Shown: piece by piece, positions 13,721 through 50,963 of the stretch
Layout of the letters: each line of letters opens with the position of its first letter
Numbering within the stretch: position 1 is the stretch's first letter
Origin: Glutinoglossum americanum
Taxonomy: Eukaryota; Ascomycota; Geoglossomycetes; Geoglossales; Geoglossaceae
NCBI GenBank assembly: GCA_020080175.1
Contig: JAGHQL010000052.1
Span: forward strand, 62,001 to 126,000
Direction of reading: 5' to 3'
DNA length: 64,000 nucleotides
Notes under the pieces: model-generated
What the model was told of the DNA's origin: nothing
Databases searched by the model: none
Seen by the model: the letters and a program-made list of their open reading frames with translations, nothing else
Program-made: the position numbers and the translations under genes

Positions 13721-14784
13721 TCAGCGTACCGCTGGAGCGCAGCCCAAATTACCACTCACAAAAACCACCAGCACAGCAGCGTACCTTCTCCATCGTTAGC
13801 GACATGTAAATTCCATACCAAATGTCCGCGAATAACTTACGCTGCAGCTGCAGCAAAAACCTCCGGCAGGCGAGCATTGGTGAGGAGACCCACAGATATG
13901 GAGAATGCACACGTATACCCTGCTATCATCCAGAGCCTTGCCTTTGCTGCCTCCACGTTATATAGACTCACGATAGCGCCTATTAGGAGGCCCGCTGCGA
14001 GTGCAACACTAATGGAGGTAACAGCACGCGATACGGAAGTCTCAGAGACGTATGCTATTGATCCATCAGTTGGACCATTCTAATGTATTCTCTCAGTCAG
14101 CGCCACGACACCCTGCCGGTGGAGACCATGCCTGAAAAAAAATCCCCAAGTATTTGTACACGAATTCCGTAAGGCGATTCTGCTCTGCTGCTGGATGAAG
14201 TGCTATCAAGTCGTTCTCGTCGTCGAGCACATGCGCGCTGCGTCCTCCAAGCTTTGGCGCGCGTTGTCCGTCAGGACGATCTAGCCCGTGAAACCAATTG
14301 CGGAAGGCTGTGAGTGTGCGGGAGCTTGGATGGCTGAGGTTTAGGACGGCGTGTTCAAGGATTATAGCCTCTCCTGGGCTCAACTTCGATCAGCGTGCAG
14401 ATTCTAATACTGGGGGCGCATGCAGGTACTCTCACGGTATTCCTTTAGAGTTCCTCTTATCTTCTCCGCAAGTACCATTCTCTCCCTCTCTCGGTGTCGG
14501 TTTTCCAGCGCTGCATTCTGGGCAAAGTCGCTCCAGGACCTGGCGCATTGCTTCGCAACCATGTCACTATCCTTGAGGTCCTCGGCGTCATATCCATCTT
14601 GCTCAGCTTCCAATTCAACCAGTTTGCTTTGAAGATATAGTAGGTTCCTTGATGAGAGTCGGTCAAACCGCCTGTAGATGGCCGCCGACTTGTATTTGTC
14701 GTCGGCAATGAATGCTGCAAGCGAAGGGAAGCCGTTGATGTAGCGCTTTCTCGTGTTTCCAAGCTCGATGTTCTGCTGCATCAC
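13721..14784 (-). CDS. DUF6594-family membrane protein
   Basis: Four exons, complement(join(13721..13784,13841..14079,14162..14373,14436..14784)), total 864 nt (287 residues) in closed phase. The N-terminal part has the DUF6594 pattern: GFPSLAAFIADD, AIYRRFDRLSSRNLLYLQ, LVELEAE, KIRGTLKEYREAIILEHAV. The middle has FRNWFHG and DENDLIAL. The C-terminal part has the paired membrane helices and signature AVTSISVALAAGLLIGAIVS, ARLWMIAGYTCAFSISVGLL, TNARLPEVFAAAAAYAAVLV and VFVSGNLG. Introns are 62, 82 and 56 bp. The 14162/14161 junction (GTGTAC donor) is the least certain; it was chosen because it alone keeps phase. The family is common in filamentous ascomycetes and has no known function. Confidence 0.8.
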
Positions 14785-15357: not shown

Positions 15358-17648
15358 ATGCCGTGGATTAGTTTCTCCGGAGCTCAGCTATTACGCGCGG
15401 CGAGAAATGGACAAGAAGATGCAGTGCTAACCTTACTTGAGAGTGGAGGTGATGTTGCCCTTAGGGACTCATCTAAGAAAACCCCGCTGCACTTAGGAGC
15501 CGAAAATGGCCACGAGCTAGTGGTAAAGCTCCTGCTGAAGAAAGGCGGTGACATCACCGCACAAGATTCCTCCAAGGAGACTCCGCTGCATTTAGCAGCC
15601 AGAAATGGCCATAAGTCAGTGGTGCGACTACTGTTAGAGAGGGGGGGCGGTATCACCACAAAGGATTTCTACGGGGAAACTCCGCTGCATCTAGCAGTCG
15701 AGAATGGCCATGAGTCAGTGGTGCGGCTCCTGCTAGAGGACGGAGGCAGTACCAACCTGAAGGGTTACTTCGAGAGAATGCCGCTACATCTAGCAGCCAA
15801 AAATGGCCATGAGTCAGTGGTGCGACTACTGTTAGAGAAAGGAGGCGATNNNNNNNNNNAGCCAAAAATGGCCATGAGTCAGTGGTGCGACTACTGTTAG
15901 AGAAAGGAGGCGATGTCACCGCAAAAAATTTCCACGGGGAAACTCCGCTGCATCTAGCAGCCAAAAATGGCCATGAGTCAGTGGTGCGACTACTGTTAGA
16001 GAAAGGAGGCGATATCACCGCAGAGGATCTCTACGGGGAAACTCCGCTACATCTAGCAGCCAAAAATGGCCATGAGTCAGTGGTGCGACTACTGTTAGAG
16101 AAAGGAGGCGATATCACCGCAGAGGATCTCTACGGGGAAACTCCGCTACATCTAGCAGCCAAAAATGGCCATGAGTCAGTGGTGCGACTACTGTTAGAGA
16201 AAGGAGGCGATAACACCGCAAAGGGTAGTACAGCTCTACGTCACGCGGCAGCTAGTAACAGTAGGAAAGCAATACGTATGCTAACTGAAGGGGGGGCTAA
16301 AATTGCTTCGAGCCTAAACACTGATGGGATGTTCGTTAAAGCACGAGCGACGAGCAGACGGCCGCGGGAGCGCCGCGCTCCGAAAGATGCTGCCAACTCT
16401 AGTCATGCCCTCATAATGAGGTGCGGGAAGGAGCTACCCCTTCTCGTCCGGGGGGTCCCGGTGATATCTTGCCCCGACACCGGATCTGAGGAAAACATCA
16501 TGGCCGAAAGTCTAACGCATCAGCTTGGTTTGCCCATCCAAAAGGAGGCAAAAGACTTGAAATCGTTCGAGATCGGTAACGGAAAAATTGTCCGTGCGAT
16601 TGGCCGCGCAAAAGCGTACTGTACATTCTCGAACGAGCCTCAAACTCGAGTCAAGTGCCGGTTCTATGTGTTTGCCAAATTGGCAACGCCGTTGATAATG
16701 GGGATGAAATTCCTGGATCGTACGGGGACCATGACAAAGCACCAGCATCGCCTTCGGGACCGTCTTAATTTGGCAAACTATATACCCATTGTCAGATCAA
16801 TAGGCGCACCTAAGCGACGGCTGTCATGTTATGTCGGCGGTCAGCATGTTTTAGCCAATGCTGACTCCGGCTCCGAGATCGATATGATGTCGCTTTCACA
16901 TGCCAAAAAAATGGGCTACCAGATTGATCGCCGCCTGGGGTCTCGCAGCCGCGTTATGTTTGCAGATAAGACTACAGCAGACACTCTCGGACAAGTTTGT
17001 TCCGAGGTTGCACTGGGCGACCCTGGTGGGACATCTTATATGCGAACATTTCATGTACTTCCAGGCCTTTCTTGTGATGTCCTGTTGGGCGAGGATATAC
17101 TTTACGAGACTAACGCCTTTTCTTCCTTCGAATCTTCATTTATTAACAGTGGTGACTTGGTAAAGGGCCCCTTTGAGCTCAATCGCCTTATTTGGATGGG
17201 TCGCCTCGAAAAGTTCATTGCTCATTCCGTTTCAAAGCTTAATATTTTCTCAAGAAAATCACAAAAATTAGGTAAATAGTAGACCAGTAACAACTTCCCA
17301 AAAAACACGCTGAAGCCGCCCTGACTCACGTACACAGTTCCGCTAACCACGTACGACGATGATCTGGCTGACAGAGACACTCTGGAGCTTCACCGACGCG
17401 ACCTCGAGATTCAGAGAATCAGAGGTTTGACTGGCCGGGAGCGACTACTGGCCGAGGAGGCGGAAAGGAAACGGACAGAGCAATACGACCGAGATCGGCT
17501 TCTCGCCGCTCACCCCGACCCGCCTGTTTCAACGGCTTTGCCGCAAGCCACCAGAGTTCGGACAAGGCCACCGCCTAGAACCGCCTTGCGCGACGCTAGG
17601 GCCATGCCAACACCATGCCCCCAACGCCGGCACCAGCTACTTAATTAG
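15358..17648 (+). CDS. Ankyrin-repeat protein with two retropepsin-like aspartyl protease lobes
   Basis: Two exons: 15358..17271 (interrupted by an assembly gap) and 17338..17648; the 66-bp intron (GTAAAT...CACAG) joins in phase. The first part is a run of about ten 33-residue ankyrin repeats (TPLHLAAKNGHESVVRLLLE), several of them identical at DNA level. A linker (about 16300-16400) leads to two consecutive retropepsin-like folds. Lobe 1 has the active-site triad CPDTGSEENIM and the downstream LIMGMKFL strand. Lobe 2 has NADSGSEIDMMS and DVLLGEDIL. Both lobes keep Asp-Thr/Ser-Gly, so a monomeric two-lobe protease is possible. The C-terminal exon is highly charged (DLEIQRIRGLTGRERLL, EEAERKR) and Pro/Arg-rich. 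No integrase, reverse transcriptase or LTR accompanies it, so I treat it as a host gene. The reading frame across the 10-N gap is undefined. Substrate and role are unknown. Confidence 0.75.
15850..15859. other. Assembly gap (10 N) in ankyrin array
   Basis: Ten Ns lie within near-identical 99-bp ankyrin units. The frame differs on the two sides, so the gap length is a placeholder and the true repeat number is unknown. Confidence 0.95.
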
Positions 17649-25911: not shown

Positions 25912-26092
25912 TCGTGAGCACGCAGCGGGCATACAGGAGAGACTTGACTAATGAAACGAACTGCCTTCTAGAAAGTAAAGGCAGCAAAAGAGCAACCAGC
26001 GATCCTTCCCGGTGCAGGAGCCACTCCCGTGGAAACATGCATGCTGCCGAGCGGCATACCCGCACCTCCATTACAAGAATTTTAACAATTGG
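25912..26092 (+). repeat. Dispersed repeat family R1, copy 2 (central part)
   Basis: Landmarks GAGCACGCAGCGGGCAT, AGGAGCCACTCCCGTGGAAA and CATGCATGCTGCCGAGCGGC match copy 1 and the reverse copy at 59.5 kb. No protein-coding capacity. Confidence 0.6.
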
Positions 26093-26158
26093 CAAATTGA
26101 ACTACGGTCGGCATTGGCCTCGTCATGGTAGCACCATTGGATAACCGGAGCTCGCTTA

Positions 26159-26384
26159 ATGGTGGCTTGGCGATAAAAGCGGCAGGACCCACGGCTTTCC
26201 GATAGAGGATTTGAAAGAAGCAGTCTGCAAGGCAGAGCAAGCAGTTGAGGCCACACCTGAAGGCCATTCAGATCTTGCAGGAAGGTTGAACAACCTAGGC
26301 AATAGGCTCACAAGGCAGTTTGAATAGATAGGGAGGATAGAGGACTTGAAAGAAGCAGTTTACAAGGTAAAATAAGTAATTAAA
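26159..26384 (+). pseudogene. Tetratricopeptide-repeat relic
   Basis: One frame gives WLGDKSGRTHGFPIEDLKEA, then CKAEQAVEATPEGHSDLAGR, LNNLGNRLTRQFE and, after a stop, RIEDLKEAVYKVK. This is the 42-residue TPR unit (LEEAI..A..AV.ATP..HPDRA..LNNLG..L) found at the C-terminus of fungal TPR proteins carrying NB-ARC, patatin or CHAT domains. Only about one and a half units remain, ending where the AT-rich repeat block begins at 26385. No NB-ARC or effector domain is visible upstream. It is a dead fragment. Confidence 0.7.
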
Positions 26385-27415
26385 ATCATACTTGTATTAT
26401 AGTGACTACTGGGTAAGGGTCTAGTCAGCTACTGAATAAGCTGAGAAGAAAGACTAGTTCTAAGAAAGGCTGGTAGAGTATAAAAGAGACTACTCTAGAT
26501 ATAATATACTAAGTAGATGATATATAAATAAAGTCCACAAGGACTCTACTAATGACATTATAAAAAACTCTACATAGAAGTATAGCTAATAGCAAAAGGT
26601 ATGACTGGTAGTAAAAAAACTATATAGGTAGCATGAAAACTCTATATAGAAGTATAGTTAGTAATAGAAGAACTGTATAGGTATTATGAGAGTATTATAT
26701 AAAAGTATAGCTAGTGACGAGAGATATCAAGTCTTTGAGAGCATTGTAAGTACTCAAGGTTTGAAAGAGTCACTCACAAGATTGTCCAAGAGTTTGTAGG
26801 TAGGTTTTGAGCTTAAATAAGTGTTATAACTTAATAGGAGTTCTGGTAGGACATCAGGAGTAGACAGGCTGAATAGTAGAATAGATATAGAGTTACTATA
26901 TAGCTTCTATTAGATAAACTATATATAAGAAGTATATTGACTGATGGAGATTGAAGGGTCAACTCTGTCAGTTAGAAAAGGAGCTTGCAAACTTGGCTCA
27001 AATACAGATGACATGCTGGTCTAAGCTTATGAGCTCTACCCTTTGTAGCTCTACATACCATGATAAGAGGACTACATATATATATAAATAAAGGACCATA
27101 GTTAAGAGACCCACATAGGGTCAATAGATAACTTAGTTATTAGTTAATTAAAGGAAGGCTAGGCGAGCTTTTACTCTCAGATTTCTTAAGACTATTAGTA
27201 TATAAAAAGACTAAAGAGAGCCCAAAAAAAAACCTTATCAGTCAATACTCATAATCATTATAGATAGACTATCAAGACTAATAAAGTTACTTTCTCCATC
27301 ATATTACATAATTAGCTTCCCTTATTTCTTTATGACTGGCTCTTTAGAGCTAGCTTAGTTCTGATACCTGTAGCATCTAACTTTTGTGACCTAGCTTATA
27401 TAAGTAGCCATTATA
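26385..27415 (-). repeat. Minisatellite-bearing element Z, copy 1
   Basis: It aligns along its length with the reverse complement of 31215-31945: both run from TATTATAGTRACTACT through a tandem ~53-bp unit (AACTCTATATAGAAGTATAG and onward) to CTTATATAAGTAG. The solo LTR at 26725-27065 lies inside it. The ends resemble a worn LTR (TG...CA with transitions), but no internal coding region is present, so the class is uncertain. Strand here is relative to copy 2. Confidence 0.6.
26725..27065 (+). mobile_element. Solo LTR, family L2, old RIP-worn copy nested in element Z
   Basis: About 341 bp, matching the young LTR at 29995-30338 from end to end, with many transitions. It is flanked by 5-bp direct repeats (AGAGA/AGAGG). 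A fossil with no internal region. It must be younger than the element Z copy it interrupts. Confidence 0.8.
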
Positions 27416-27430
27416 TATTCTTCTCTTACT

Positions 27431-27902
27431 TGTAAGAACTCTCGATACCAAGGTAATATGAAGGCACTCTGACGTCGAGGGATCTAGGGGGTTCGATAAC
27501 AGTGTGACGTCACACCCTGCAGTGATAACAATGGCTTGCCAACTGGTCTGCATTTAGGTAAGGTTTAGATGTATAAGGACTAATGGATAAACTTGATAGT
27601 TGATAGTTCAGGGCGACTTGATGTTGGCCTAGTTTAGAATGTAAAGTAGATGGAATAGACTTGATTCTAGTAAGCAGGAAATGTAGAAGAACTAATTGCT
27701 AACCTCCAGCGGGAGGCCAGCAAGCCACTTATATACATGACGGGTATTTAATAATAGACTAGACGTCATAAAGTAATAAGGATGTATACTTGCAGAATCT
27801 ATATAGCCATATAAGTAAGTCACCATTTATATAACCTGAGCTAGTTACCCAGCTGTGGAGGCCTTAATAGCCTCGCCGGGTAACTGACTGTAGGTCATGA
27901 CA
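27431..27902 (+). mobile_element. Solo LTR, family L1
   Basis: 472 bp beginning TGTAAGAACTCTCGATACC and ending GGTCATGACA. It aligns with the LTR at 29667-30508. Flanking pentamers TTACT/CTACT are likely target-site duplications. No internal domain lies next to it, so it is a solo LTR fossil. Confidence 0.8.
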
Positions 27903-29458
27903 CTACTGTCTGTCCCTCTCTTACTATCTTCTTTTACCATTCTTTTCTTATGTCATATCATGTAACCAAGGCTACTGTAGCATCATCTGAACCTATATGT
28001 ATATAGCATTTATTTTCTTTTTACAAATCTAAGAAAACTAGATTAAACTCTATTAGTGGTTTCAAACTTTGAGAAGATTTTTTATTTAAAGATAGAACCA
28101 CCTTATTTATGTACGACTTTTTATTTATTTATTTTTCTATCATTTATCTAATATGCTAATATACCTTAATAATTAAAGAGAAAGATCAGCTACTCAAGTA
28201 TATTATTCTTAATAAGAATACTGATTACTGAAAAGAATTCCTGACAGTAGTAAGGAGAATTAAAAAAATAGTAGGAGGCTTGAAGAAAAGGATAGAGGAA
28301 GTTAAGAAAAAGATAGAGGACTTAAAGGAGAGGATAATAAAGACTGAAAAAAAGATAGAGAGGGTTGAGGAGAGAATAGAGGAGTTAAAAGAGAGGATAG
28401 AAGGGTTTGAAAGAAGGGTAGGGGTGACAGAAAAGGTCTTGAGGAATATTATAGGAAAGTTAAATAAGTTGGAAGGTATGATAGAAGTAGAAGTAAGGTG
28501 GTAGTAAGGATGTATAAGGTGATAGAAAAGGTAGTAGAAAAGGGATTAAGAAGAGTGAAGAGAATTGAGAAGAAAGAGAAAAGATAAGAAGAGATAAAGA
28601 GAAAGATAATAGTATTGGAAGAGAAAGTAAAGAAGATAGAAGCTATAGCAGAAAAGTAGCAATGAGAGAAAAAGGAAGGAGATAAGAGTGGTCATGAAGC
28701 AATCTTTTTTGAAGGGAATTTTTTTTTAAATTAATTTTCTAATTTTCATAACTAATTCTCCTTATTTTACTTAATACTAGCTAGCTAACTTAAGCTATGA
28801 GATTTACTTGTATTACTATTCAAAAGCCTTATCTCATAAAAACTCTCTATACAAAAACTATCTTTAGTAAGAAAAAAAGTAATTAACCTAAATATTTTAA
28901 ACTAAGTAACTTGTATCAAGACAGCAAAAGGAACTAGAAAAAGTACTTTAAAGTAGAAGATAATAGATTTTTTTTTTCTTCAAACTCACATACATTATAT
29001 TATTCTTTATATATATTATTCTCTACACTACTACTATCACTTATTCTCTTAGCTACTATATCATCTATCTTCTAATACATTATATCATTTTTTATACATT
29101 CTTATATATTATACTATCTTCTTAATTAATACATATTATCTATCTTCTAATATATTACATTACTCCCTATATGTCTTATATATTCTATCATTCTTACAGC
29201 AATAGACTTGCATTTTTACCAAGTCTATTTTTTTTCTTCAAATAAGATTCAATTAATATAAAGTTTACTGATAATATTACTCTTTGTAGATTTGTTTATA
29301 AGCTAATAATTATACAATATATAATTTTTCTTTATTTATTTATTTTTTTTATCATCTATTTAACTAATAAAGACTTTTTAGTAATTAAAAAAAAGAGAAG
29401 TATCAGTTAAAGGCTTCTTTCACTGAGATAATTTTTGTGGAAATAAAAAGAAGAAAGT
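27903..29458. other. AT-rich, RIP-like sequence between fossils
   Basis: Very AT-rich with T-tracts and short tandem motifs. It contains the purine-rich coiled-coil stretch (28241-28690, listed separately) and two related AT-rich segments (about 28105-28200 and 29320-29420) that look like diverged copies of each other. No intact gene. Confidence 0.5.
28241..28690 (+). pseudogene. Purine-rich tract with a Lys/Glu coiled-coil frame
   Basis: The longest open part (28280-28504) encodes a heptad coiled coil rich in Lys, Glu, Arg and Ile (KKRIEEVKKKIEDLKERI and similar units). Past a stop the same frame goes on with charged residues. The plus strand is almost free of C over 400 bp. It may be a decayed coiled-coil protein gene, or a GA-rich repeat that mimics one. 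No recognised family. Confidence 0.3.
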
Positions 29459-29491
29459 TATAAAAACTCTTGATACTAAGGTAATACAAAG
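29459..29491 (+). mobile_element. LTR family L1, head fragment
   Basis: About 33 bp matching the first 33 bp of the L1 LTR, with only transition differences, joined directly to pogo transposase sequence. Confidence 0.5.
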
Positions 29492-29666
29492 GTGTACAAA
29501 TTTATGATGTATCCGATACTACTCTCCACTTCAGAATGAATGACAGATAATCAAAAGCAGAAACCAGACCAAATATTTGACTTCTAGATAAATTAGAGAA
29601 GGAGGTCCTTATTCAGTATATAATTGACTTAGACAATTGAAGGTTTTCTCCCTGACTGAAGGATAT

Positions 29667-30508
29667 TGTAAGAACTTTCGATATTAAGATGACATGAAGG
29701 TACTCTGACGCTAAAGGTTCTTAGGAGGTTTAGTAATAGTATGATATCATACCTTGCAGTGACAACAATAGCTAGTCACCTAACTTATATATAGATAAGA
29801 CTTAGGTATTTAAAGACTAATAGGTTGACTCAATAGTTTGAAGATAACTATATATCAGTCTGACTTAGAATGCATGGTAGATAGGATAGACTTGATTCTA
29901 GCAGGTAAGAAATGTAAAAGACTGATCGCTGACTTCCTGCTTAGAGGCTAGCAGGTTATATATATATATAATAGTAAATGTATAATAACTAGGATGTCAG
30001 GTCCTAGGGGGGTGCCGCGGGTGCTCGAGGCTCGAGGGGGTCGTTCGGGAGGTCGTCCGTGGGCTCGCGAATGAGTTCTCGAGCTCGAATAGGTGTCACG
30101 GCATGACAGGAGGTCCGGCGGGATGTCAGAGGTAGATAAACTGGGTAGGAAGATGGATATGGGGCCACCGGGTGGCTTCTATTAGATGAACTATATACAA
30201 GAGGTGTGTTGACCGATGGAGGTTGAAGGGTCAACTCCGTCGGTCGGAAAGAAGGGGTTGCGGGCTTGGCTCGAGCACGGACCACATATTGGTCCAAGCT
30301 CGCGAGCTCTACCCCTTGCGGCTCTGTGTGCCGTGACATAGGAGATTATATTGCTATAAGAATACAAGCTTCTAGTATTGACTTCAGAATATATACTTCC
30401 AAAGTTTATATCACCATATAGATGAGACGTCATTGATGTCACATAAACTAATTATCTAGCCATAAAGACTCAGCAGCCTCGCCAGGTAACTGATTGTAAG
30501 TTATGATA
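29667..30508 (+). mobile_element. Solo LTR, family L1, inserted in pogo copy B
   Basis: It starts TGTAAGAACTTTCG and ends GTAAGTTATGATA, flanked by a perfect 5-bp repeat GATAT (29662-29666 and 30509-30513), with pogo reading frame on both sides. About 500 bp belongs to the LTR; the remaining 344 bp plus a duplicated pentamer is the nested L2 LTR. Worn by transitions. Confidence 0.85.
29995..30338 (+). mobile_element. Solo LTR, family L2, young copy nested in L1 LTR
   Basis: 344 bp starting TGTCAGGTCCTAGG and ending GTGCCGTGACA, with perfect TAGGA target-site duplications (29990-29994 and 30339-30343). It is GC-rich, in sharp contrast to its AT-rich surroundings, so it arrived after most RIP here. 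Looks whole as a solo LTR. Confidence 0.9.
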
Positions 30509-31214
30509 GATATAGAAGATATAACTAACACAATTCTTGCATTATATCATGGACTTCTAATCAGTAAGCTTTAGGTGTATCAACTTGTAAAATACACTCT
30601 AGAGCTAAAGACACATTCTTTATATTTCTATGATTACTAAAAGGCTCAATGTGAAGATTTCAAGCTTCTTGAAGTTTGGTTCTAGCATATTGCAAATATA
30701 AAGACTAAATATAGTATTCAAGATAGTAACATCTGAAACTTTGATAAGGCTGAATTTATGATTGGAGTGATTTCTAGTAATATGGTCATTATAAAGACTG
30801 ATTGAAAGAGAAAAAGAAAGAGAATACAGCCTGGTAATTGAAAATAGGTTACTGCTATTGCTTGTATCAATACAGACAGTTATAATATTTCTCCATTTTT
30901 GGTAGTCAAGAGTATGGTTTATCTTACTGATTAGTATACTAAAGGTAACTTACCACACAACTGGGTAGTTAAACTAACTGAAAATAGATAAACAGATAAT
31001 ACAACAGGCTTGAATTGGATTCAATATTTCAATAAACATACTTGTTCTTTAAAGAAAGATAGATACCAGATGTTAATACTCAATAGGCATAAAAGTTATA
31101 TATCTATCAAGTTTGATGAATACTGCAAGACTCATAATATTGTAGCCGTTTGTCTTCCTCCTCATTCATCACACCTAACTCAAATACTTGATGTCGCATG
31201 TTTTGGAGTTTTTA

Positions 31215-31945
31215 AATAGAATTATATCACTACTACTTATATAAGCTGGGCTACAAAGGTTGGATGCTACAGGCATCAAGGCTAAGCTAGCTTTAAGGAA
31301 CTGGTTACAATGGAGTAAGGGAGGCTAGCCACGTGGCATGAGAGGAGAATAGGCCTAATAGTCTTTAATAGTCTATCTAAGGTAATTATAGTATTGACCG
31401 ATGAGGTTCTCTTCAGAACCCTCCTTAGCTTTCTATATATACTAATGACTCTGAGGGGCTCACAGGTAGAGACCTGCCTGGTTCCCTCTATGTATGTATA
31501 CAGACCTCTTGCCCCCAGCTGTGCTTTCATTGGGAAGTCTTTATGATGCTCATGTAGTTCCCTTATTACTGGCCATGCCTTTTGCTACTACTGGTGCTTC
31601 TATATAGAGTCCCTATAATACTTATGCGGTTTCTTCACTACCAGCCGTATTCCTATATGGAGTTCTTATGATGCCCATATAGTTCCTTTGCTGCCAGCCA
31701 TACTCCTATATAGAGTTTCTATAATGCTTATATAGTTCCTTCATCACTAACTATGCTCCCATATAAAGTTCCTTTATAATATTATTGGTAGAGTCTTGCG
31801 AGCCTCATTTATATGTTATTGACTTAGTATATTATATATAGGATAATTTCCTTTATGCTCCGCTGGCTTTTCTTAATGCTAGCTCTCTTTTTTAGATTGT
31901 TTGGTGGCCTACCAGGCCTTTACCTAGTAGTTACTATAATATTAA
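31215..31945 (+). repeat. Minisatellite-bearing element Z, copy 2
   Basis: Reverse-complement partner of 26385-27415, without the nested LTR. It carries about six tandem ~53-bp units (about 31530-31770; CTATATAGAGT, TTATGATGCCCATATAGTTC and similar). It interrupts pogo copy B. No coding capacity seen. Confidence 0.6.
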
Positions 31946-32476
31946 GATACTCTTTCAAGCCAAATTTGTGAAAAACAAAATTGCTTATCATCAAGATAGC
32001 TTATCAATGACAATTTTAAATATGTTTACTCAGACAGTAAGAGGATTAGAAGTTATAGCACATAATTTCTCACTTGTGAATACTTAAATTGATATCTTTG
32101 AGAAGACTTTAAAGGCTCTTAGCAAGTACAAAAGAGCTAAAAGAATACATGTTAGTAAAAGAGGACTAATTGAAGTTGAGAATACTATAGGCATTTTAAC
32201 TCAAAGAGAAGTAAATAAGCAAGTGCAAGTAGAAAAGCATTGTAGGGGTGGTAATGACAGAGCTGGTCCATTGATCACTTATCACTATAGCAAGTATGGA
32301 AAGATAGAATATAATATAAGAACATGTTAAATTAATACTTAAATAGTTTAGTTTCCCTAAGTGGCTAAATTTTTGGCTACTTGGAAAAACTAGACTGAAT
32401 GTAGTAATTAAAAAGTCTGAGGGTTGTGAAAAGTTCAATGCTTGGTAATATTCATTGCTTACTGATAAGTGATATT

Positions 32477-33368
32477 AAATTAATTTTGGAAATAAAGTTA
32501 TTGATCTTAAACTGAATATTCAGATAAGATAATATCTTTACAATATTAAGTAGTACTAGTATCTAATATATTGATTATTTTTTGAGAAAAAGAATCAATT
32601 TAATATTTTTTTTTAAATAATTCTTTTAATAATAAGTTACTAGATCTCTCTGTCCGATCCTCTATCAAACTAACATTGAAAAAAAGTTAATGTAATTTCA
32701 GAAAAATTTGTTTTTATTATTTTAGTCACATATCATTATCCTTTGGTAGGTTTCTAGTATGTCAAGTCAAAGTGTTGGCCCTCAACAGAAGAGGTTGCTA
32801 GTTGTCCGCAGACTAAATACTTCGACAACCCCAGTCATTATTCATGAGCTTTACAACAGGATCAGGTCAGGCTTCTTCCGGGGCTTCTCGGGGTTGGTGC
32901 GAGGCCACCGCTGTGGTTTAGACCGGCTTGCCTCTTTTGATACTCCGTTCATAGGTGTCGGAGCCGAGATGGTGGGATGGTGGTAGTGACTGTTAAGGGT
33001 AAACCCTCGTGTAAATTAGCCGAGTGGTTACCACTCTAAAAGTTTTAGCTAGACACACGTACAACATAACTATGAAGAACACACATTTCTACCTGAACGA
33101 CCTAACAATAGGCAAGTATCACTTGTTTCGTGATCCATATCACCGACTACAAGTTATCTTGCAAACGTAGGCACTCTAGAGACCTGGCAACATTACCCGC
33201 TGCATAATACACAAGAGCACCGTTCCCTAGTCTGCGCGTGTGTTAATGGTAGCTTTGTGTGACATTTTGTATTGCTAGGATTGCGTTCGTATCCCTTGCG
33301 ATTGCTAGAGTGTGTATCTGCTAGGCGAAGATCTAAGTGGCTAGGAGTTATCGTAGAATCAAGGTAGA
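32477..33368. other. AT-rich margin and intergenic region
   Basis: The AT-rich block fades near 32.7 kb. An open frame at 32759-32986 shows no family. A short repeat (32982-33050) is shared with 46.65 kb. The rest carries no supported feature. Confidence 0.4.
32982..33050 (+). repeat. Short dispersed repeat R2, copy 1
   Basis: About 70 bp matching the reverse complement of 46640-46708. The core is GTGACTGTTRAGGGYAARCCC followed by TCGTGTAAATTAGCCGAG and TTACCACTC.AAAAGTTTT. Confidence 0.7.
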
Positions 33369-34845
33369 TTACAATTCATCCTTTCGACTACTCTTCACAA
33401 CTCTGGGTTTCAGCTCTCTCTTCACCATGCTAGTGATAACCTCGTATACCAGTTGCGCGGCAGCCAAGGCTGTGCTCTCTCCCCGATTATCGTAAGCAGG
33501 CGCAACCTCAACGATATCGGCTCCCACTACATTCAGTCCTTCTATGCCCCTTAAAATCCTGATCATCTCTCTTGTCGTCCAGCCACCCGGCTCGGGGGTG
33601 CCAGTTCCAGGCGCCAAACCCGGGTCAATAACGTCGATATCAATACTCAAGTAAGTGGGAGTTTCGGTTCCAATTCTCGCCAAGATTGCCTCAATGATGC
33701 CATTGGGCCCTATCTCATCAATATCGTCGCTAGATAGTCTTAGAAACCCTTGTCTATCATCATCGTCATAGTCGTCCCACCCATCGCCGCCGATCCTGGT
33801 TCTCAACCCTGCATGTACGGATGATCCGTTCAGGATCAAACCTTCATTACTCGCAATCCAGAACATAGAGCCGTGAGTAAAGTCGCTAGTTTGGGAGCGC
33901 CAGCTTTTAGAATATGCTGCCGGGTCCCATGTGTCGAGATGTGCATCAAAGTGCAGAACCGCAATCGGATGCCCATATATCTTATTAAGCGCTCGGAGCG
34001 CTGGCAATGCTACCGAATGGTCTCCGCCCAGCGTAATCAGCTTCGGTTTCCGGTCCTTCCCAATGTCTCTCAGAGTATGGGGACCGCCGGCATATGCCGG
34101 GAGATAGGAGCCGAGCTGTAGGAAAGCTTCAGACATCTGAGTGAGAGCAACAGCATTGTCGAACGGCGTGATCGGAATGTCTCCGCAATCAATAATAGTG
34201 GCCCACGAAGTATATGGATTCATTGACGCACGTGTGTTGAAGCCGCGGAAGGAGGTTTGACGGGAGGAAGCGGCACGTATGGCACGAGGCCCGAAACGCG
34301 CACCTGGTATTTGGAGTTTAGTTAGCCTCCTCCCGAAACATTTGCTTAAAGAGACACAACGATGGCGTTTCGGAACTGGAATTTGGAAAAGAAAGACTGG
34401 ATAATCGGTAAGATAGATTTTTATAGCCCGAGCCCAAAAACAGGTTGAGCACCTCAAAAACCCAATCCAAGGCATCACCTACCAGGCCTATAAGTAACAG
34501 CCGTATCAAACGGCGCTCCAATGATACCGATATCAAACCTCTCTTCCGGATGCGTCAGGCATTTCACATGTCGCTGGTGCGCGAAGGTGGAGATCCCAGA
34601 ATAGCCCAACTAGCATCCCAACCAACATCGCACTTTCATCAGCTTTCATCTTCCTCAATCGGCTGGAACACCCGCGAAATACATACATCAAATCCCCATC
34701 TATCCCTCAATTCATCTCTCTCCTTCTCGTCAACATGCGCAGACGAGAGGACCTCTTCTTGGTGATCATGCGCGGAAACAGAAGGCAGAAAAATAGCTCG
34801 AAGAAAGACGAGGAAAATGTAGAATGCCGGTGGTGATCTCACCAT
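33369..34845 (-). CDS. Secreted agmatinase-family ureohydrolase
   Basis: Three exons, complement(join(33369..34303,34483..34609,34687..34845)), give 406 residues with closed phase. Residues 1-25 form a signal peptide ([18 protein letters not shown] then HDHQEE). The arginase/agmatinase fold is marked by [46 protein letters not shown] and [20 protein letters not shown], which carry the His and Asp ligands of the binuclear manganese site. These enzymes hydrolyse guanidino compounds to urea and an amine; secreted fungal members are usually annotated agmatinase, but the substrate is not proven. The 179-bp intron between exons 2 and 3 is long, and an extra small intron or exon there is possible. 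Confidence 0.88.
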
Positions 34846-47028: not shown

Positions 47029-50000
47029 ATGGCGCAAGGCGGAAGTTACTTTAGTGGTAGGAACTATGTATACGGCGGGAACATCGTTCAAGGAAATGTC
47101 AACACATCTGGTGGATCGTATACAGTCAGTAAGTGGATCTATCTAGCCTAACTGGATTGGTTGCATGCTGTGCTAATCCTGATTAGACTTCGGAAGTACA
47201 GATCGTCGGAGAAGAGAGATTCTGCAATGGTTGTCTCCAATACCGTATGAACAGCATCATAATACCAACAAGCTTGACATTCTTAAAGACACTGGGAGGT
47301 GGCTCTTCCAAACGAACACCTTCACTCAGTGGAGAGATCCCAGTGAATCCTCGATACTTTGGCTGCATGGAATTCGTAAGTCTGGAGGCTGATTTCCGAT
47401 GATATCACAACTAGCTAATAAAGCCTTAGCCGGTTCTGGGAAGACCAAGTTAATGTAAGAGCCAAAACTCCAGGACATAGATCCACCACACGGTACGCGG
47501 AATCGCTAAATCGCATACCATCATGCCAGATCAATCGTTGTCGACACAGTCCTTAAGGACGCTGAGACCAAATGCGCTTACTTTTACTGTGCACGTAACA
47601 CTTCTGAACCTGAACGCTCAAATCCAGTGGACATACTCCGCAGTGTTGTGAGGCAAATGTCAACCCCGAGATCAGGGGAGCCTATCCTCGGTCCGACCAC
47701 AGAAATATATGAGAAGCGAGAGAAGAACGGTCATGCGGGTGGAACTCTTGGAATAGAGGAAAGCGTCGAACTCATCACCAGCTTGGCGACCCACCATCCG
47801 CTTACTGTAATCATCATCGATGCGTTAGACGAATGTGATACGAGCACACGATTCAAGTTGTTCGAGGCCCTGGCCACCATTCTTCAGAAAGCTACTAATG
47901 TAGTAAAAATTTTCGTATCTAGCCGTGACGACAAGGATATCGTCCTACAATTGAAGGGCTGCCCAAATCTGTACGTCAGTGCCAGAGACAGTGCGGAGGA
48001 TATCAAGAGATACATCGAGACCGAAGTTAGGAAAGCCATTGACCAGAATCGGCTACTCGGTGGTGACGTTTCCGAAGAACTGGTCCGAGAGATCAATGAA
48101 AAATTGATACAGGGGGCACAAGGCATGTGAGTCAACAGTTTAATTGATCGTAATAGCCAATGTCATTTACTTAGGCTTTTTTTTCTAGGTTCCGCTGGGT
48201 AAGTCTTCAGCTGCAGAATCTCTGCAGCAACAGAGTGAATTTTGAAGAAGACGTTCGAGAGAGGCTTCACAGCCTTCCGCGAGACCTTGCAAGCGCCTAT
48301 TCTGAGATCTACAGGCAAATCTCTGAATCACCGGAGCGAAGCCGGGTGGTTGCGATAAAGACATTTAAATGGATACTCTGCAGCCAAAGGAGTCTGACTG
48401 TCGACGAGTTTCTTGCCGCTGTTGGGGTTGACCCTCAGCAGAAAAACCCTAAGGAGGTCGTCTTAAGCGTCTGTTGCAATCTTGTTATATTCGATTTAGA
48501 AGTGAGGGTCTTTCGGTTCGCACACCTCTCAGTACGAGAGTATCTTGAAGGACGAGGCGACTATACAGCAACGGCAGTGCACTCCTTCGTTGCAGAGAAA
48601 TGTCTACTTATCTGTCTTAGCAATAGCCAGGCTGCAATGACGGCTATATCCTCTGAAGACCCCCTGCACAGATATGCAGTAATGTATTGGGCAGTTCATT
48701 GTCAGAAGAGCGAGGATGGCCGATCTAGGGACAATCTAGGTAACCTATTCCGTCAGTTTACTGGGAAAGGGGGTATCGGGAGTCCATCATTCGATAGTTG
48801 GACCCTATCGGCAACGGCACCTCTCCCCCACTTACGGCGCCCGCTCCGCAGCGGCATTGATGGTAAAATTGCATCAGCGATTAGTTCCCCGGCAAATCCC
48901 ATCTTTGCAGCCTGTATTTGGGGGTTTCCCGAGGTTTTACAATGTGCGTCGAGATCGAAGCCGAACGCTCTGGAGATGACAAATACAGACCATGAGACAC
49001 CTCTACAACTTACAAGTATGTATGGGCAATGCGAAATGGCTCGGTTGCTGCTCGAGGGGGGAGCCAACATAGAATCAATGAATGATCATGGTTGGACGCC
49101 GTTGTGCTGGGCCGCGCAGAGCAAGGACGAGGCCATCACGAAACTACTACTCGAGAAAGGAGCCGATCTAGATTCTAAGGACAAATCTGGTCGGACACCG
49201 CTGTGGTGGGCTGCGTGGAAAGGGAGCGAGGCTATTGCGAAGTTGCTGCTCGAGAGAGGGGCAGATCCAGATCCTAAGGACGAATCTAGTAAGACACCGC
49301 TGTGTTGGGCCGCGTGGAACGGGAACCCGGTCATCGCAAAGTTGCTGCTTGAGAAAGGGGCCGATCCAGATTCCAAGGACGAGTTTGGTCGGACACCGCT
49401 GTGGTGGGCCGCACGGATAGGGAACGAGATCGTCGCAAAGCTGCTGCTCGAGAACGGGGCCGACCCGGGTTCCAAGGATGAATGTGGTCAGACAACGCTA
49501 GAGTTAGCTGTTCAGGAAGGGAGCGAGACCATCGTGAAGTTGCTCCTCGAGAAAGGGGCCAATCTGAATCCTAATGGCGAATCTAGTCGGACACCGCTGT
49601 GGCGGGCCGCGAGGAAAGGGGACCAGGCTATTGTGAAGTTACTACTCGAGAAAGGGGCCGATTCAGATCCCAGGGACGAATATGGCCAGACACTCCTGTG
49701 GTCGACCATGCGTGAAGGGAACGAGGCTATCACGGGGTTGCTACTCGAGCAAGGGGCCGATTCAGATCCCAAGGACGAATATGGCCAGACACTCCTGTGG
49801 TCGGCCATGCGTAAAGGGAACGANNNNNNNNNNCCAAGGACGAATATGGCCAGACACTCCTGTGGTCGGCCATGCGTAAAGGGAACGAGGGCATCATGAA
49901 GTTGCTTCTTGAGAAAGGGGCCGATCCAGATTCCAAGGACGAATATGGCCAGACACTCCTGTGGTCGGCCATGCGTAAAGGGAACGAGGCTATCATGAAG

Positions 50001-50963
50001 TTGCTTCTTGAGAAAGGGGCCGATCCAGACTCCAAGGACGAATCTGGTCAGACACTCCTGTGGTCGGCCATGCGTGAAGGCAACGAGGCCATCACGGAAT
50101 TGCTACTCGAGCAAGGAGCCGACCCAGATTCCAAGGACGAACATGGCCAGACACTCCTGTGGTCGGCCATGCGTAAAGGGAACGAGGCCATCGCGAAGTT
50201 GCTTCTTGAGAAAGGGGCCGATCTGGATTCCAAGGGTGAATATAGCCAGATGCTGTGGTGGGCCGTGGAGGAAGGGAACGAGGCCATGGCGAAGTTGCTG
50301 CTTGATAAGGTGGCCGATCCGGATCCTAGGGACGAATATGGTCAGACACCGCTGTGGCGGGCCGTGCAGGAAGGGAACAAGGCTATTGTGAAGTTGCTAC
50401 TCGAGAAAGGGGCCGATCCGGATCCTAGTGGTGTATATGGTCGGATACCGTTGCGGTGGGCCCCGCAGAGAGGGAGCCGGGCTATCACGGAGCAGCTCCT
50501 CAAGAGAGGAACCCGCGCAGGTCCCGAGGCCAAATATAGTTGGACACCGCTGTGGTGGGCCGCGTTGTCAGGGAACCAGGCTATTGTGAAGTTGCTACTC
50601 AAGAATGGGGCCGATCCAAATTCCAAGGACAAATATTGTCAGACATCCCTGTGGTCGAACTTGTATGGAAAGGACGGGGCCATCGCGAAGCTGCTACTCG
50701 AGAAGGTGGCCGATCCAGATACTAGGGACAAATATGGCCGGACGCCGCTGTGGTGGGCCGCGTGGAAAGGGAAGGAGGCCATCGCGAAGTTGCTGCTCGA
50801 GAAAGGAGCCGATCCAGGTTCCAAGGACAAATATGGTCAGACGCCGCCGTGGCCGGCCGAGTGGAAAGGGAACAAGGCCATCGCGGAGTTGCTGCTCGAG
50901 AAAGGGGCCGATTTAGATCCCAAGGGCGAATATGGTCGGACACCCTGTGGTGGGTCGCATTAG
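47029..50963 (+). CDS. NACHT-ankyrin NLR protein
   Basis: Five exons, 47029..47128, 47187..47375, 47430..47454, 47530..48126 and 48189..50963, with introns of 54-75 bp; phases close up to the gap. The first ~34 residues are Gly/Asn/Ser/Tyr-rich (MAQGGSYFSGRNYVYGGNIV and so on) in place of a folded effector domain. The NACHT ATPase has Walker A HGIPGSGKTKL, Walker B LTVIIIDALDECD and the sensor-like KIFVSSRDD. A winged-helix-like region follows (LHSLPRDLASAYSEIYRQI, FRFAHLSVREYLEG). About twenty 33-residue ankyrin repeats (TPLWWAA..GNEAIAKLLLEKGADPDSKDE) make up the rest, several nearly identical at DNA level. NLRs of this kind sense non-self and can trigger cell death in fungi. A 10-N gap lies in the repeats with different frames on each side. 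The last unit loses one base relative to its sisters (near 50943), so the protein ends within it. Confidence 0.85.
49824..49833. other. Assembly gap (10 N) in the NLR ankyrin array
   Basis: Ten Ns placed between units that are nearly identical over 99 bp. The size is a placeholder and repeat number is unresolved. Confidence 0.95.

What the first reader, a model, noticed from the sequence alone, without database searches (positions are those of the whole stretch)
16380..17271. Ankyrin protein ending in two covalently linked retropepsin-like lobes
Retropepsins act as dimers, each subunit giving one Asp. Here two retropepsin-like domains, each with Asp-Thr/Ser-Gly and a matching Leu/Met-Gly strand (LIMGMKFL, DVLLGEDIL), sit in one chain behind an ankyrin array. 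This could make an intramolecular, pepsin-like protease directed by ankyrin recognition. No LTR, reverse transcriptase or integrase lies nearby, and the frame is open.
Basis: partly seen in the sequence, partly recalled or inferred. Interest (0 to 1): 0.75.

Follow-up and report, generated by a model that had tools for sequence, protein, structure and literature searches.

The report
Fungal ankyrin protein with twin protease lobes
A fungal gene joins a string of ankyrin binding repeats to two matching halves of a retrovirus-type protease in a single chain, so it may be a self-contained protein cutter aimed by its repeats, but no activity, structure or close relative could be shown.

Summary
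The frame 15882-17279 ends in two lobes matching Pfam Asp_protease_2: 41.5 bits in two stretches; lobe 1 passes the curated cut-off alone, lobe 2 does not. Both keep the clan AA signature at identical spacing: 41 and 73 residues from Asp to the two later Gly motifs. A profile of the two lobes finds DDI1 proteases first in the PDB. The gene is larger than reported: 10 N interrupt the ankyrin array, and a 66-base intron (17272-17337) probably leads to a charged tail ending at 17648. No reverse transcriptase or integrase was among the families seen nearby (25 of 28 shown).

Most likely it is a single-chain retropepsin pseudo-dimer steered by ankyrin repeats. Pairing of the lobes, catalysis and targeting are inferred: AlphaFold without relatives failed (pLDDT 31 and 40), and no close homologue was found, in collections not meant to hold fungi. 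Tandem lobes in one chain are not new: a Sphingobium plasmid protein has two such stretches plus PDZ. I rate it a new variant of a known kind.

The parts
15358..15849 (+). first part of the ankyrin array, from ATG 15358 (first start codon after an in-frame stop) to the assembly gap; 4 complete 99-base units counted
15850..15859 (.). assembly gap (10 N) inside the ankyrin units; true length and unit number unknown
15860..16301 (+). second part of the ankyrin array (3 complete units counted, two of them identical over 99 of 99 bases) and, by eye, a degenerate end cap
16302..16394 (+). linker between ankyrin cap and lobe 1, basic by eye
   Evidence: no Pfam match
16395..16754 (+). retropepsin-like lobe 1: Asp-Thr-Gly 16476-16484, Ile-Gly 16599-16604, Ile-Met-Gly 16695-16703
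   Evidence: PF13650 26.6 bits for 16302-16760, cut-off 24.3
16773..17150 (+). retropepsin-like lobe 2: Asp-Ser-Gly 16863-16871, Leu-Gly 16986-16991, Leu-Leu-Gly 17082-17090
   Evidence: for 16761-17276: PF09668 19.2, PF13975 19.2 and PF13650 18.2 bits, all below their cut-offs
17151..17271 (+). end of the exon after lobe 2
   Evidence: no Pfam match
17272..17337 (+). probable 66-base phase-1 intron: GTAAAT donor, CTGAC 12 bases before its end, ACAG acceptor
   Evidence: inferred from consensus and frame, no RNA evidence
17338..17648 (+). probable last exon: charged tail, probably helical (by eye)
   Evidence: open in phase with exon 1; best of six frames but codon score slightly negative, -0.065; no Pfam match

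Best explanation
A host gene of a filamentous fungus encodes an aspartic protease, probably intracellular, in which two retropepsin-type lobes in one chain pair with each other, each giving one Asp, to form one active site. The ankyrin array in front binds the target and brings it to the site; the charged tail may add dimerisation or a partner. Shown: two complete lobes with intact signature motifs at equal spacing, joined to ankyrin repeats in one open frame. Inferred: the intramolecular pairing, catalysis, targeting by ankyrin, location in the cell, and the last exon.
For: Two stretches of PF13650 in one chain. Identical motif spacing in both lobes and lobe-lobe similarity above all 2000 shuffles. 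A profile of the two lobes finds DDI1 chains first (best E 0.0006), ASPRV1 later (0.28), among PDB chains; with one bacterial lobe added, DDI1 at 5.4e-9. 39 residues lie between Gly 134 of lobe 1's last motif and Leu 174, where the DDI1-like part of lobe 2 begins, which I judge ample for pairing; a single-chain tethered HIV protease dimer is named in a title in the reference list of PMC3185513 (passage only). Both lobes read without stops in the best-scoring of six frames. The ankyrin units vary mostly at unit positions 3 to 12, the finger region by my recall.
Against: No usable structure: AlphaFold pLDDT 31.3 for the pair and 40.2 for lobe 1 with lobe 2 as the only other row; Foldseek with the latter gave 0 matches at E 0.001 or below and no aspartic protease in the 50 rows printed of 136. 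Lobe 2 alone is below every Pfam cut-off. BLASTP of lobe against lobe E 0.26. phmmer of the pair against the PDB found nothing significant; DDI1 homolog 2 was third at E 1.7. The codon score of lobe 1 (0.009) is below that of every training gene (0.030 to 0.248, scored on themselves). Lobe 1 has Pro just before its Asp, where retropepsins usually carry another hydrophobic residue (recalled). No close homologue to test conservation. No RNA or activity data.
Confidence: 0.45

Rival explanations
1. The lobes fold as retropepsins but no longer cut: a pseudo-protease used as a peptide-binding or dimerising module of an ankyrin scaffold.
For: Pro before the Asp of lobe 1; low scores of lobe 2 alone; in the one bacterial tandem protein read, lobe 2 has Asp-Leu-Gly, by eye, instead of Asp-Thr/Ser-Gly, so tandem lobes can drift.
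Against: Both lobes keep Asp, Thr or Ser, Gly and both later motifs at equal spacing.
Confidence: 0.27
2. The active enzyme is a dimer of two chains, lobes of one chain pairing with lobes of a second, as in dimeric retropepsins, with the tail as dimeriser.
For: Retroviral, DDI1-like and Lpg0085-like proteases become active as dimers of two chains (PMC11313796, passages); the probable last exon is charged and may be helical.
Against: Two complete lobes in one chain make a second chain unnecessary; no test was possible.
Confidence: 0.17
3. A captured or decaying retroelement protease fused by chance to an ankyrin gene, without a function of its own.
For: Retropepsins in fungal proteomes can come from unmasked transposons (PMC8778642, passages, which also says their number does not correlate with LTR retrotransposons and that domestication is plausible); PMC11105155 counts these Pfam families as transposon-related (passages).
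Against: No reverse transcriptase or integrase among 25 of 28 families shown for 75 frames; no direct repeats of 60 bases or more other than ankyrin units in 8-26 kb; open frame, best of six; two lobes rather than one.
Confidence: 0.08
4. An artefact of assembly: unrelated ankyrin and protease genes joined.
For: An assembly gap lies in the ankyrin array.
Against: The gap is inside the array, 535 bases before lobe 1; the stretch 15860-17271 is unbroken and in one frame.
Confidence: 0.03

Closest known systems
Bacterial tandem Asp_protease_2 plus PDZ proteins (read here: WP_013039112.1, Sphingobium sp. SYK-6 plasmid pSLPG)
   Same: Two Asp_protease_2 stretches in one chain joined to a protein-binding domain; its first half matches both fungal lobes, E 1e-5 and 6e-4. 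Bacterial aspartyl protease plus PDZ proteins are named as functionally uncharacterised in PMC6411480 (passages).
   Different: PDZ behind the lobes instead of ankyrin in front; Asp-Leu-Gly, by eye, in lobe 2; bacterial.
DDI1 proteases (PF09668; MEROPS A28 by recall)
   Same: Best PDB matches of the lobe profiles.
   Different: One lobe per chain, dimer of chains; PF09668 at 24.0 bits is below its cut-off of 26; no ubiquitin or UBA domain listed in 15882-17276.
Pepsin family A1
   Same: Two lobes in one chain, one Asp each.
   Different: No pepsin model listed at E up to 1; lobes of about 120 residues with equal spacing.
Fungal NLR proteins with ankyrin arrays
   Same: Ankyrin units with high internal similarity, as described for fungal NLR repeats (PMC9815663, passages).
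   Different: No NACHT or NB-ARC listed in 15882-17276; the enzyme part is behind the repeats.
LTR retroelement proteases
   Same: Same signature (gag-asp_proteas PF13975 at 40.2 bits, cut-off 28.2).
   Different: No polymerase or integrase seen nearby; two lobes.

Membership tests
Retropepsin-like, Pfam Asp_protease_2 (PF13650) | score above the curated cut-off of 24.3 | tested here: met
   41.5 bits for 16302-17276; lobe 1 alone 26.6; lobe 2 alone 18.2, below it
Retropepsin-like, Pfam Asp_protease_2 (PF13650) | Asp-Thr/Ser-Gly and hydrophobic-hydrophobic-Gly in each lobe | tested here: met
   both lobes, 73 residues apart in each
Retropepsin-like, Pfam Asp_protease_2 (PF13650) | proteolytic activity with two Asp in one site | not testable with these tools
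   no usable model, no assay
Pepsin family A1 | two lobes in one chain, one Asp each | tested here: met
Pepsin family A1 | match to a pepsin model | tested here: not met
   of aspartic families only Asp_protease_2, gag-asp_proteas and Asp_protease listed at E up to 1
DDI1 (PF09668) | score above the cut-off of 26 | tested here: not met
   24.0 bits
DDI1 (PF09668) | one lobe per chain, with ubiquitin or UBA domains | tested here: not met
   two lobes, neither domain listed in 15882-17276
LTR retroelement | reverse transcriptase and integrase beside the protease | tested here: not met
   75 of 81 listed frames in the first 35 kb; 25 of 28 families shown, none of these kinds
Fungal NLR | NACHT or NB-ARC domain in the protein | tested here: not met
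   not listed for 15882-17276 nor among 25 of 28 families shown for frames around it; the 10 N gap cannot be read
Bacterial tandem Asp_protease_2 with PDZ | two Asp_protease_2 stretches in one chain | tested here: met
Bacterial tandem Asp_protease_2 with PDZ | PDZ domain | tested here: not met
   none listed at E up to 1 in 15882-17276 or 17325-17645

The most novel reading that the evidence does not exclude
A kind of eukaryotic protease in which a fast-changing ankyrin array recognises a non-self or regulated partner and an attached single-chain retropepsin cuts it: a recognition protease of fungal immunity or incompatibility that needs no NACHT switch, and a living parallel to the step from dimeric retropepsins to two-lobed pepsins.
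Probability: 0.15. Interest if true: 0.8.

Novelty: new variant of a known kind. Interest (0 to 1): 0.5.

Why it matters
Pepsins are usually assumed to come from the doubling of a dimeric ancestor like retroviral proteases (PMC2642776, passages). A chain with two near-equal retropepsin lobes that does not match the pepsin model would show that such doubling happened more than once and can be studied in a living protein, and would add a directed protease to the fungal repeat proteins.

Tried and rejected
Structure: single-sequence AlphaFold of 16383-17276 gave pLDDT 31.3, pTM 0.19; lobe 1 with lobe 2 as the only other row gave 40.2, pTM 0.33; Foldseek with that model gave no match at E 0.001 or below. 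I draw nothing from these.

Homologues: tblastn of the two-lobe protein found none in phages and plasmids at E up to 1. Pattern scans with the protein or the lobe alignment found no relative in viral contigs or genome contigs; two more viral scans, one with the bacterial tandem protein and one with an alignment led by its lobe, also found none. None of these collections is meant to hold fungal genomes, so absence says little. NCBIfam: none at E up to 1. PHROGs: one family of unknown function, E 0.14 for the pair and 0.032 for lobe 1.

Plasmid matches: 31 records, best E 0.4, 20 listed. I fetched 4 of 31 (L002 to L005; L002 and L005 carry the same protein accession), scanned only the L002 protein with Pfam, and dropped the Sinorhizobium match L004 by eye because its frames do not look like proteases.

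Papers: searches (some listed only a part of what they found: 25 of 35, 10 of 24, 8 of 89). None of the listings showed an ankyrin protein with tandem retropepsin lobes; only open-licence papers are held. PMC3828140 passages gave nothing of use. No paper was read whole. From recall and not from any call: I believe tandem retropepsin-like proteins occur in other filamentous ascomycetes; not verified and not used.

The idea that ankyrin units are under diversifying selection: some close unit pairs differ by many amino-acid changes and few silent ones (15742 against 16005: 0 silent, 11 not), but units are not independent, seven are few (only units with a full [TM]PLHL motif and 33 codons were counted), and the positions were chosen after looking; kept as a hint only.

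Full report
Observation. The window looks like DNA of a filamentous fungus by its gene content (DUF6536, DUF6594, an NPHP3_N/ankyrin NLR-like gene; that the two DUFs are fungal is recalled) and a probable intron; no own genome is held. The open frame 15882-17279 begins in an ankyrin array and ends in two lobes. Pfam finds Asp_protease_2 in two stretches, 41.5 bits for 16302-17276, 26.6 for lobe 1 alone and 18.2 for lobe 2 alone against a cut-off of 24.3; gag-asp_proteas (40.2, cut-off 28.2) and Asp_protease (24.0, cut-off 26) also match; no pepsin model is listed at E up to 1.

Both lobes are complete. In the protein from 16302 (P0001), Asp 59 is followed by Ile-Gly at 100 and Ile-Met-Gly at 132; Asp 188 by Leu-Gly at 229 and Leu-Leu-Gly at 261. 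The distances are 41 and 73 residues in both. The global alignment score of the lobes (48) was not reached by 2000 shuffles (maximum 38), and none of 20000 shuffles of the protein held two signatures, though 86 held one (the pattern was written after seeing the sequence). Against this, BLASTP of lobe against lobe gave only 9 residues at E 0.26, identity is 18%, and phmmer of the pair against the PDB gave nothing significant, with DDI1 homolog 2 third at E 1.7 behind a ribosomal protein and an RNA polymerase subunit. A profile of the two lobes searched in the PDB finds DDI1 proteins first, E 0.0006, and ASPRV1 at 0.28.

Gene anatomy. The array is cut by 10 N at 15850-15859, so the number of units is unknown; the first part reads from ATG 15358, the first start codon after an in-frame stop. 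The two parts lie in different frames as deposited; I take the N run as a placeholder of wrong length, so this is no sign of mutation (inference). Seven complete units of 99 bases were counted, four before and three after the gap; two are identical. After lobe 2, a GTAAAT donor at 17272, a CTGAC and an ACAG ending at 17337 bound a 66-base phase-1 intron; the frame goes on to a stop at 17646-17648 with a charged tail. The lobes' frame has no stop and the best codon score of six; the values, 0.009 and 0.066 bits per codon, are low beside the training genes (0.030 to 0.248, scored on themselves), and lobe 1 is under the lowest of them. The last exon is also the best of its six frames but slightly negative, -0.065. 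So the last exon is probable, not shown.

Surroundings. Of 81 stop-to-stop frames of 90 or more residues that start in the first 35 kb (frames crossing the N gap were not listed), 75 were scanned; six, three overlapping the gene and three at the far end, were left out. No reverse transcriptase or integrase was among the 25 families shown of 28 matched. Ungapped direct repeats of 60 bases or more in 8-26 kb are only the ankyrin units. Upstream on the other strand lies a DUF6594 frame.

Relatives. None was found in phages, plasmids, viral contigs or prokaryote genome contigs with the natural sequence or the lobe alignment. A consensus of the lobes found weak matches on plasmids (31 records, best E 0.4), among them a Sphingobium protein whose 400 residues hold two Asp_protease_2 stretches, 57.3 bits, and a PDZ domain. 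Its first half matches both fungal lobes directly, E 1e-5 and 6e-4. By eye it has Asp-Ser-Gly in lobe 1 and Asp-Leu-Gly in lobe 2. So two retropepsin-like lobes in one chain, joined to a binding domain, exist elsewhere; the ankyrin version is a variant of that.

Mechanism. The simplest reading is a single-chain pseudo-dimer with one active site, steered by the ankyrin array. Equal, complete lobes and 39 residues between Gly 134 and Leu 174 fit. A Pro before the Asp of lobe 1, the low score of lobe 2 and the lack of a model or orthologues leave a non-cutting binding module as the main rival. The ankyrin units vary mostly at unit positions 3 to 12: the summed amino-acid types there are 33 of 67, the highest of 33 rotations (positions chosen after looking), which fits a recognition surface. 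Fungal NLR repeats are described as highly variable, under positive selection, and similar inside one array (PMC9815663, passages). A Colletotrichum study lists PF13650 beside ankyrin, NACHT and caspase domains among strain-specific genes (PMC5915685, passages), a lead and no more.

Verdict. Observation confirmed; interpretation partly supported; new variant of a known kind; interest 0.5.

Noticed in passing
47510-50963: A fungal NLR-like gene: NPHP3_N and GPIID winged-helix matches followed by a long ankyrin array of 99-base units.
   Followed up: partly
15850-15859 and 49824-49833: Both assembly gaps of the window (2 of 2, 10 N each) lie inside ankyrin arrays, so unit numbers of both genes are uncertain.
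   Followed up: no
26001-34000: AT-rich block, GC 0.27 to 0.40 against 0.47 to 0.57 in the other 2-kb steps, with short tandem repeats; could be a mutated repeat region.
   Followed up: no
14404-14784: DUF6594 frame on the minus strand upstream of the ankyrin gene.
   Followed up: no
16005-16202: Two neighbouring ankyrin units are identical over 99 of 99 bases, a sign of recent unit copying.
   Followed up: partly
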